Source: Prevotella sp. (GTDB taxonomy: Bacteria > Bacteroidota > Bacteroidia > Bacteroidales > Bacteroidaceae). From it: a stretch of 64,000 nt of DNA. Below, in pieces: positions 2,658-4,510 of the stretch. The stretch spans positions 1 to 64,000 of the forward strand of contig JAFUEP010000016.1 of the NCBI GenBank assembly GCA_017470345.1, given 5' to 3'. The notes under the pieces are model-generated. The model saw only the letters and a program-made list of their open reading frames with translations, was not told the origin of the DNA and searched no databases. The number at the start of each line of letters is the position of its first letter. The first letter of the stretch is position 1. Made by a program: the position numbers and the translations under genes.

Positions 2658-4385
2658 ATGAACTCTAAATGGAATTACGAACAACCTTCACCCGAGCGCA
2701 GGCAGGCGGCTAAGGAACTGGCCGACAAGATCGGCATGAGCCCCGTGCTGGCCGAGCTGCTGCTGAAGCGCGGCATACGGACGGAGTCGGCCGCCAAGCG
2801 CTTCTTCCGGCCGATGCTCTCGGAGCTGATCGACCCGTTCCTGATGAACGACATGGACGTGGCGGTCGACCGGCTGAACGACGCCATGGGCCGCAAGGAG
2901 CGCATCATGGTCTACGGCGACTACGACGTCGACGGATGCACGGCCGTAGCGCTGGTCTACAAGTTTCTGCAACAGTTCTACTCGAACATCGAGTACTACA
3001 TCCCCGACCGCTACGAGGAGGGCTACGGCATCAGCCGCAAGGGCCTCGACTACGCCAAGGAGCAGGACGTCCGGCTCATCATCGTGCTCGACTGCGGCAT
3101 CAAGGCCGTCAGCGAGATTGCCTACGCCCGCGAGCTGGGCATCGACTTCATCATCTGCGACCACCACGTGCCGGACGACGTGATGCCGTGCGCCGTGGCC
3201 ATCCTCAACCCGAAGCGCGAGGACTCGACCTACCCCTTCAAGGACCTCTGCGGCTGCGGCGTGGGATTCAAGTTCATGCAGGCCTTCGCCAAGAACAACG
3301 GCATCCCCTTCTCGCAGCTCATCCCGCTGCTCGACTTCTGCGCCGTCTCGATAGCGGCCGACATTGTCCCCGTCATGGGCGAGAACCGCATCCTGGCCTA
3401 CCACGGACTGAAGCAGCTCAACCAGAACCCGTCGGTCGGGCTGAAGGCGATCATCGAGATCTGCGGACTAACGGGGCGCGAGATCACGATGAGCGACATC
3501 ATCTTCAAGATAGGGCCCCGCATCAATGCCAGCGGACGCGTGCAGAACGGCACGGAGACGGTGGACCTGCTCGTCGAGAAGGACATCAAGCGGGCACTGG
3601 CCGAGGCCACGCACATCAACGAATACAACGAGCAGCGCAAGGACATCGACAAGCAGATGAGCGAGGAGGCCAACCAGATCGTGGAGCGCCTGGAGAGCCA
3701 GGAGCACCAGCCCGCCATCGTGCTCTACAACGAGGGATGGAAGAAGGGCATCGTCGGCATCGTCGCCTCGCGCGTGGCCGAGATATACTACAGGCCGACG
3801 GTGGTGCTCTCGTGCAACGACGGCATGGCCAGCGGGTCGGCACGGTCGGTGGCGGGCTACGACATCTATGACGCCATCAAGTCGTGTCGCGACCTGCTCG
3901 AGAACTTCGGCGGACACACCTATGCCGTCGGGCTGTCGCTCCGCGTGGAGAACATCCCGGAGTTCCGGCGACGATTCCAGCAGTACGTCAGCGAGCACAT
4001 ACTGCCCGAACAGACGGAGGCCCTGCTCGACATCGAGGCGGAGGTGGACTTCAAGGACATCACGAAGAAGCTGCAGAACGACCTGAAGAAGTTTGCACCG
4101 CACGGACCGGAGAACCCCAAGCCCGTCTTCTGCACCCGGCATGTCTACGACTACGGCACGTCGAAGGTGGTGGGCAAGCAGCAGGAGCACATCAAGCTGG
4201 AGCTGGTCGACTCGCGCTCGTCGAACGTGATGAACGGCATCGCCTTCGGCCAAAGCGCCGCCGCACGCTATATCAAGTCGAAGCGTTCGTTCGACATCGC
4301 CTACACCATCGAGGAGAACATCTACAAGCGCAGCGAGGTGCAGCTGCAGATTGAGGACATTAAGCCGTCGGAGGATGAGAAGTGA
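2658..4385 (+). CDS. recJ: Single-stranded-DNA-specific exonuclease RecJ
   Basis: RecJ degrades single-stranded DNA 5' to 3' in recombination and mismatch repair. The 575-residue product has the usual family length and shows the DHH phosphoesterase motifs in order: VYGDYDVDGCTA near residue 85, IVLDCGIKA near 138, and the signature ICDHHVPDD near 170. A DHHA1-type C-terminal region follows (GWKKGIVGIVASRVAE, then SGSARS and FGGHTYAVGLSL). Its stop codon lies in the first heptamers of a repeat that leads into recQ 18 bp downstream, so the two repair genes are probably co-transcribed. Nothing catalytic appears to be missing. Confidence 0.95.
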   Translation: MNSKWNYEQPSPERRQAAKELADKIGMSPVLAELLLKRGIRTESAAKRFFRPMLSELIDPFLMNDMDVAVDRLNDAMGRKERIMVYGDYDVDGCTAVALVYKFLQQFYSNIEYYIPDRYEEGYGISRKGLDYAKEQDVRLIIVLDCGIKAVSEIAYARELGIDFIICDHHVPDDVMPCAVAILNPKREDSTYPFKDLCGCGVGFKFMQAFAKNNGIPFSQLIPLLDFCAVSIAADIVPVMGENRILAYHGLKQLNQNPSVGLKAIIEICGLTGREITMSDIIFKIGPRINASGRVQNGTETVDLLVEKDIKRALAEATHINEYNEQRKDIDKQMSEEANQIVERLESQEHQPAIVLYNEGWKKGIVGIVASRVAEIYYRPTVVLSCNDGMASGSARSVAGYDIYDAIKSCRDLLENFGGHTYAVGLSLRVENIPEFRRRFQQYVSEHILPEQTEALLDIEAEVDFKDITKKLQNDLKKFAPHGPENPKPVFCTRHVYDYGTSKVVGKQQEHIKLELVDSRSSNVMNGIAFGQSAAARYIKSKRSFDIAYTIEENIYKRSEVQLQIEDIKPSEDEK

Positions 4386-4510
4386 TAGATGAAAAGTGAA
4401 AGATGAAAGATATGATTAGTTTTGACGAATTGAAAGAGGCGACGAATGCGGACGGCGCATCTGCCTGCGAGACTAATCATATTTTTCATCTTTCACCTTT
4501 CATCTTTGAG
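4383..4510 (+). repeat. Heptamer-flanked palindromic element, copy A (recJ/recQ)
   Basis: The left arm has heptamers of the AGATGAA/AAGTGAA type followed by ATGATTAGT. The right arm has ACTAATCAT followed by the complementary TTTCATC-type heptamers. The arms pair over about 40 bp. The core between them is about 50 bp and carries an ATGCG/CGCAT mini-hairpin. The left edge supplies the recJ stop codon and the element is translated as the first 30 or so residues of RecQ. A closely related core occurs at 50050-50130 (queG) and a shorter version at 30674-30735 (trmH-like gene). Confidence 0.85.

What the first reader, a model, noticed from the sequence alone, without database searches (positions are those of the whole stretch)
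4383..4510. A palindromic element with a protein-like conserved core recurs at the 5' ends of unrelated genes
The element at recQ (4383-4510) and the one at queG (50003-50155) share complementary heptamer arms, ATGATTAGT/ACTAATNAT inner ends and a core of about 50 bp. Translated in the same frame, the cores read MKDMISFD...KEATNADGASACETN and MKSMISSD...KDATNADESSACNTN. A shorter copy (30657-30752) keeps the arms but not the core, and a partial one lies at 9126-9180. Several synonymous differences keep peptide identity while the arms drift in heptamer type. The closest known analogue I can name is the Rickettsia palindromic elements, which insert in frame within genes; I know of no such description for this element.
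Basis: partly seen in the sequence, partly recalled or inferred. Interest (0 to 1): 0.82.

Follow-up and report, generated by a model that had tools for sequence, protein, structure and literature searches.

The report
S23p-less copies of hairpin gene cassettes
The palindrome in front of two Prevotella genes looks like an empty relative of a widespread, little-described DNA hairpin element whose full form carries the gene for a small protein known from insertions in ribosomal RNA.

Summary
The palindromes are real, but the reading changes. Arms plus TATGATTAG/CTAATCATA inner ends recur at least 14 times in this genome, mostly around different loops. One copy (C42) encloses an intact "four helix bundle"/23S-rRNA-IVP gene (S23p, PF05635). 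S23p genes in general lie between inverted arrays of tandem 7-mers or 8-mers: 74 of 89 loci against 7 of 178 re-paired flanks, and 8 of 8 plasmid records examined (five phyla). Of 119 other ORFs 2 do: one PF13366, one an S23p my filter missed. Unit sequence is free; unit length follows the S23p clade. S23p usually points along the gene whose stop codon abuts its 5' arm. Sister species carry different elements at the same site (flanks 96-98% identical, element 72%), and the recJ-recQ junction is empty, filled or refilled among relatives. I read the recQ and queG copies as S23p-less members of this mobile, IVS-like family. The "peptide" shows no purifying selection, and the queG copy is out of frame with QueG. 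Not shown: movement itself, RNase III cutting, and that the short loops are S23p remnants (tested; no similarity). My searches found no description in print of the S23p-arm rule.

The parts
4386..4411 (+). 5' arm of the recQ element: tandem GATGAAA-type 7-mers, directly behind the recJ stop codon (4383-4385)
   Evidence: sequence; recJ TIGR00644 544 bits; pairs with the 3' arm in the fold
4411..4481 (+). recQ element: inner ends TATGATTAG (4411-4419) and CTAATCATA (4473-4481) around a 53-nt core
   Evidence: no purifying selection on the core peptide
4482..4507 (+). 3' arm of the recQ element, inverted 7-mers, read through in frame into RecQ (start 4403)
   Evidence: RecQ of most listed relatives aligns only from about residue 35
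49992..50157 (+). queG element: 5' array GAAGTGA (49992-50037), inner ends 50058-50066 and 50120-50128, core, 3' arm 50129-50155; its ORF from ATG 50059 is not in the QueG frame
30656..30748 (+). short palindrome without the core, between a gene ending 30656 and an SpoU methylase gene; open from ATG 30674 into it
9126..9180 (+). degenerate remnant hairpin with GATGAAA-type units
   Evidence: weak fold, z -2.35

Best explanation
The recQ and queG palindromes are S23p-less members of a family of hairpin elements whose full form is: tandem 7-mer arm, short inner end, gene for S23p (PF05635), inner end, inverted arm. SHOWN: the architecture and its breadth; placement against gene stop codons, S23p mostly pointing along the upstream gene; different elements at identical sites in sister species; unit length following the S23p clade. 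INFERRED: the element rides in the host operon's mRNA, where the arms form a long stem as in the 23S rRNA IVS, probably cut by RNase III. The incoming arm usually has stops in all three frames and often ATGA/GTGA/TTGA start-stop overlaps, so it ends upstream translation; the outgoing arm seldom has stops in all frames, so an ATG in the element can restart into the next gene. Insertion at operon junctions would thus be tolerated and sometimes leaves N-terminal extensions such as RecQ's. S23p is the likely hairpin- or array-binding mobility factor, and S23p-less palindromes would be moved in trans, MITE-like. Arms stay matched either because movement regenerates both or through template-switch repair.
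For: Same arms and inner ends around an intact S23p gene on C42. Flank inverted repeats: 74 of 89 S23p loci reach score 30, re-paired flanks 7 of 178; 121 of 150 distinct domains; 8 of 8 plasmid records examined, of 25 with a match; other ORFs 2 of 119, one PF13366 and one a missed S23p. Orientation: ORF end at the S23p-upstream arm only 46, downstream only 4, both 19, neither 17 of 86. Unit length: 7 vs 8 in 4/13 and 76/4 rows of two clades; 6 changes on the tree, shuffled minimum 13 of 300. Site exchange between G000 and G296. S23p pair L225/L248: dN 0.05, dS 1.48. No Rfam match, so no rRNA, in 20 S23p loci. Coxiella IVS precedent: S23p ORF, terminal stem, heptamers, RNase III cutting (PMC4990558, passages and Discussion read).
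Against: No movement, excision or RNA cutting was observed. Loops of the short palindromes are not recognisable S23p remnants: of 9 loops tested against 13 S23p elements none clearly beats shuffles (best 3 of 30 shuffles as high). GAC follows TATGATTA at an end in 10 of 12 short copies typed in but only 6 of 30 S23p-element ends. TATGATTA and TTTGCTACC inner ends are clustered on the S23p tree but need 3 changes each (shuffled mean 5.3). No target duplication was identified. Stops in arms are largely a matter of composition (81 of 114 inward, 55% after permutation), and arm stops inflate the stop-codon placement test, although stops wholly outside the arm are also enriched (29 left, 11 right of 86; control 2.8%). 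Clade A comes almost wholly from this genus.
Confidence: 0.6

Rival explanations
1. No mobile element: 7- and 8-mer arrays grow by slippage at gene junctions, palindromes form and stay symmetrical through template switching, and S23p genes merely sit between them.
For: One-sided arrays are common in the window and at the recQ and DUF59 junctions of relatives. Arms match within an element better than between elements (0.83 vs 0.68 for 27 palindromes), as repair would also give.
Against: Does not explain why inverted arms bracket S23p (74 of 89) and PF13366 but hardly any other ORF (2 of 119), nor shared inner ends at unrelated loci, nor a 72% identical element between 96-98% identical flanks.
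Confidence: 0.2
2. In-frame peptide-coding element like the Rickettsia palindromic elements, kept for its peptide.
For: Open frames into RecQ at 7 of 8 palindromes; recQ and queG peptides share 15 of 22 residues (own count).
Against: pN/pS about 0.8 and 1.5; queG copy out of frame; most palindromes have short, different loops; S23p is the gene carried in the larger members.
Confidence: 0.05
3. A translational switch: heptamer number (7 is not a multiple of 3) sets whether the downstream gene is in frame, giving phase variation.
For: queG copy lies in another frame than QueG. Start-stop overlaps [AGT]TGA twice or more in 65 of 110 inward arms, 4 outward, 28.5 expected after column permutation. 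TAACTGA arrays lie just before start codons in a Beggiatoaceae genome (PMC4679880, abstract and passages read).
Against: Does not explain the S23p cargo or sites with ORF ends at both arms (19 of 86). No within-species variation could be tested.
Confidence: 0.15

Closest known systems
23S rRNA intervening sequence (IVS) with S23p ORF, e.g. of Coxiella burnetii (PMC4990558, passages and Discussion read)
   Same: S23p ORF in sense orientation between complementary ends; tandem heptamers near the ORF; sporadic distribution.
   Different: IVSs lie in 23S rRNA genes; no Rfam match was found in the 20 loci scanned here. Here elements lie between protein genes, in many copies per genome, with S23p-less relatives and unit length tied to S23p clade. 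RNase III cutting is shown there, not here.
Intergenic TAACTGA heptamer repeats of Beggiatoaceae, Cyanobacteria and Bacteroidetes (PMC4679880, abstract and passages read)
   Same: Intergenic tandem 7-mers, often by start codons, stops in all frames one way and readable the other way.
   Different: Mostly direct repeats of one fixed unit (169 sets and one indirect), no S23p or palindromic cassette in the passages I saw ('four helix' and '23S' absent from the text).
MITEs and REP-type elements (recalled)
   Same: Short, multi-copy, intergenic palindromes without genes.
   Different: Here the outer arms have no fixed sequence and the likely partner is S23p, no known transposase; no target duplication identified.
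Rickettsia palindromic elements (recalled)
   Same: Palindromic, can extend proteins in frame.
   Different: Sits at gene junctions, shows no selection on a peptide, has larger relatives with S23p.

Membership tests
S23p hairpin element (described here) | inverted tandem 7/8-mer arms with shared inner ends | tested here: met
   recQ, queG and 30656 copies share arms and inner ends with the C42 S23p element
S23p hairpin element (described here) | S23p gene inside | tested here: not met
   no S23p in the window copies; loops show no similarity to S23p elements (9 loops tested)
23S rRNA IVS | located in a 23S rRNA gene | tested here: not met
   window and 20 S23p loci have no Rfam match at gathering score
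23S rRNA IVS | S23p (PF05635) encoded between complementary ends (full-length members) | tested here: met
23S rRNA IVS | RNase III excision of the stem-loop | not testable with these tools
   only stem stability was computed
MITE | non-coding copies sharing ends with a coding, autonomous element | tested here: inconclusive
   shared inner ends and arms; internal sequence and autonomy not shown
MITE | target site duplication | not tested
   arms of tandem repeats blur the edges; no systematic search made
Rickettsia palindromic element | in-frame coding core kept across copies | tested here: not met
Intergenic heptamer repeats | tandem 7-mers between genes with stops in all frames in one direction | tested here: met
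   81 of 114 inward arms, 18 of 114 outward; window arrays

The most novel reading that the evidence does not exclude
A class of bacterial selfish element spread over several phyla: hairpin cassettes with inverted tandem arms of fixed unit length but free unit sequence, inserted just behind stop codons in operons, each carrying one small orphan protein (S23p and, in parallel, the PD-(D/E)XK protein GxxExxY/PF13366) that reads the unit length and moves the hairpin. Orphan 'four helix bundle' genes would then mostly be such cassettes rather than host genes.
Probability: 0.42. Interest if true: 0.9.

Novelty: new variant of a known kind. Interest (0 to 1): 0.75.

Why it matters
The role of S23p, the protein of rRNA insertions, is still described as unknown in the paper I read (PMC4990558), and 'four helix bundle protein' is a frequent orphan annotation (10 matches in this genome, 131 of 150 genus genomes). 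The rule found here (S23p inside inverted 7- or 8-mer arms, behind a stop codon, in the sense of the operon, unit length set by clade) gives these genes a context and makes the old guess that IVSs are mobile directly testable. It also ties S23p, a relative of the DGR protein Avd, to a hairpin substrate, and shows that N-termini of genes such as recQ can come from an element.

Tried and rejected
Core search in 299 genus genomes: own plus four short hits outside the element, and insensitive (it missed queG). Long-core pattern: 19 of 398 genomes; by matched length about half of the listed copies keep frame, so frame is not a general property (my count of lengths). Rfam: nothing in the window or in 20 S23p loci. 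Phage records: two with S23p, one fetched, no arms. Viral contigs: 9 loci, 8 with score >=30, two of them near-copies. First flank script found 8 of 39 ORFs by motif and was replaced; the next control (39 loci, median 42 vs 18, control maximum 181, 20 of 39 above its 95th percentile) was inflated, I think by flanks sharing octamer classes, so I rely. A motif classifier found 53 loci and was replaced by a profile. Inner-end classes on the tree: 3 changes each for 14 TATGATTA and 6 TTTGCTACC rows, shuffled mean 5.3 (8 and 10 of 500 shuffles as low); clustered, not single clades. For that tree I left out 7 of 150 domains under 85 aa, set eight loci with chance or one-sided matches to 'other' as well as other one-sided labels, and kept L137. 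S23p dN/dS: 6 of 78 pairs had a defined dS, median 0.12. Short loops as S23p remnants: not supported. Odds of the best and novel readings were lowered slightly for that in this final version.

Literature searched: (open-licence library only). Opened: PMC4990558 (passages, Discussion), PMC4679880 (outline with abstract, passages), PMC10053308 (passages), PMC8934634 (one passage).

Full report
OBSERVATION. The window is G000:C68:1-64000 of a 2.67-Mb, 68-contig genome, 61.6% complete. The three main palindromes are real and fold with z -9.9 (recQ), -6.8 (queG) and -11.1 (30654-30750); 9126-9180 is weak, z -2.35. The recQ element starts directly behind the recJ stop codon (TIGR00644), and ATG 4403 opens a frame through the element into RecQ. 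A RecQ search found a match in 296 of 299 genus genomes; of the listed places G296 aligns from residue 2 and most others from about 33-40, though some begin earlier (for instance G212 at 8, G050 at 12), and those two hold other palindromes. So roughly the first 34 residues of the window's RecQ are element.

WHAT RECURS. In the own genome arms and inner ends recur without the core; 14 own palindromes pass a loose filter. In 299 genus genomes 12 hold the strict palindrome, with different arms (GATGAAA, GTGAATA, AATTGAG and others) around the same inner ends in the loci I printed. Arms match within an element better than between elements: 0.83 vs 0.68 over 27 palindromes; for the 14 own ones 0.81 vs 0.77, 63 of 10,000 shuffles as high.

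THE PEPTIDE. pN 0.26 and pS 0.33 for recQ vs queG, pN 0.36 and pS 0.24 for G172 vs G296: no sign of selection on the peptide. At the recJ-recQ junction, 29 of 30 fetched loci could be read; 8 hold palindromes scoring 40 or more, and 7 of these have a frame open from a start codon in the element into RecQ. I take this as a constraint from the host gene. The queG copy is out of frame with QueG, whose own frame has no ATG, GTG or TTG between 50124 and 50274.

THE FULL ELEMENT. On C42 the same arms and inner ends enclose a 122-aa ORF that is PF05635 at 90.6 bits. The genome has 10 PF05635 matches; 131 of 150 genus genomes have a match, 120 over the cut-off, none of 14 control genomes. Most of the 10 own copies lie between inverted tandem arrays whose unit differs from copy to copy. 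Of 89 loci fetched by sequence (80 genome contigs, the best of 579 found, and 9 viral contigs) 74 have flank inverted repeats scoring 30 or more, against 7 of 178 re-paired flanks; medians 45 and 18. Of 150 distinct S23p domains in my loci 121 reach 30. Of 25 plasmid records with S23p I took 8, from five phyla; 8 of 8 score 35-69 with period 7. Of 119 other ORFs in the window and in G000/G296 contigs 2 reach 30: one is PF13366, the other an S23p that my motif filter missed (it is the G296 C5:162446 match).

UNIT LENGTH. On a tree of 143 S23p domains two deep clades differ: 4 seven-mers and 13 eight-mers against 76 and 4 (15 of 32 and 31 of 111 rows had no arms, no clear period or another period). 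Two of the four seven-mers in the first clade are fragments from loci that also hold a copy of the second clade (L175, L209). The label needs 6 changes over 97 rows, shuffled mean 16, minimum 13 in 300; the four eight-mers of the second clade lie together. The first clade comes almost wholly from this genus, since those loci were the best PF05635 scores. Still, this is the best hint that the protein meets the arms.

POSITION. For 86 elements with strong arms and enough flank, an ORF of at least 100 codons ends at the arm upstream of S23p only in 46, downstream only in 4, at both in 19, at neither in 17. Because arms carry stops this test is inflated; stops wholly outside the arm within 30 nt number 29 upstream and 11 downstream of 86 each, against 2.8% at random places. 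Inward arms have stops in all three frames in 81 of 114, outward in 18; permuted units give 55%, so composition (6.5% C inward) explains much. [AGT]TGA start-stop overlaps exceed composition: 65 of 110 inward, 4 outward, 28.5 permuted.

EXCHANGE AT FIXED SITES. G000:C42 and G296:C5 are collinear at 94.6-98.4% in blocks over 150 bp. At the DUF59 junction both hold a TATGATTA-class S23p element, with flanks 98.2 and 95.6% identical but elements 71.7% (S23p 66% aa) and GATGAAA versus AACTGAG arms. At the Ddl junction elements are 99.8% identical, flanks 96.9 and 96.4%. At the ackA junction G000 has a PF13366/GxxExxY ORF and G296 an S23p element, each in its own arms; upstream of the radC-like gene G000 has S23p and G296 an ORF6N ORF without evident arms. 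Of 30 DUF59 loci 29 could be read: S23p with TATGATTA ends in 6, with TTTGCTACC ends in 1, a short remnant in L244, one-sided arrays or empty junctions in the rest (read by eye).

A SECOND CARGO. The 15 PF13366 matches of G000 and G296 have flank inverted repeats scoring 28-89, 14 of 15 at 30 or more; re-paired controls have a 95th percentile of 26 and a maximum of 540, the latter probably from orthologous or overlapping flanks. Some of the 15 are orthologous pairs. Units look longer and were not analysed.

LIMITS OF DESCENT. The short loops, recQ and queG cores included, show no convincing similarity to S23p elements (9 loops, 13 elements). Membership of the short copies rests on arms and inner ends; descent by internal deletion is not shown.

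MECHANISM. Inferred from the Coxiella IVS (PMC4990558): a stem in the transcript and RNase III cutting. Inferred from anatomy: stop and restart at the arms, S23p as mobility factor, short copies moved in trans. S23p is a toroidal homopentamer in Xanthomonas (PMC4990558, passage citing Lin et al.); a solved relative is 2rld; PF05635 resembles Avd (PMC10053308, passages; weak NCBIfam Avd match of one own copy, below its cut-off).

NOVELTY. Known: S23p in rRNA IVSs, heptamers before S23p in Coxiella, intergenic heptamer arrays. Not found in ten searches of the held library: the general rule of S23p inside inverted 7- or 8-mer arms, its setting between protein genes, S23p-less copies, and unit length tied to protein clade. 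That library lacks most subscription papers.

Noticed in passing
window 1891-1939, 24854-24912, 30530-30565, 36313-36342, 49346-49391: One-sided tandem arrays of 7-mers (8-mers at 24854) without an evident inverted partner in my seed scan.
   Followed up: partly
window 50752-50808: A 7-mer array in the stop-free direction inside the QueG reading frame 50274-51149.
   Followed up: no
L272-L286 (G000 and G296): PF13366 (GxxExxY) genes also lie between inverted repeats, 14 of 15 at score 30 or more.
   Followed up: partly
G000:C42:7398-7643; G296:C5:164150-164407 and 154236-154346: Other, G+C-rich palindromic insertions present at a site in only one of the two sister species.
   Followed up: no
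window 44962-45108 and 45038-45708: Further inverted repeats, CCCCCTCTAATCTTAGAGGG and a repeated TGCAGGTCTAAC motif.
   Followed up: no
L317, L318, L321: On plasmids S23p elements sit between DNA-methylase, helicase or restriction genes of defence-like operons.
   Followed up: no
L091 and L102, near position 1500: Nested or doubled arms, as if one palindrome had landed in or beside another.
   Followed up: no
L055 downstream of S23p, about 1925: The following gene itself starts ATGATTAGTTTTGGC, as the long-core elements do; perhaps chance.
   Followed up: no
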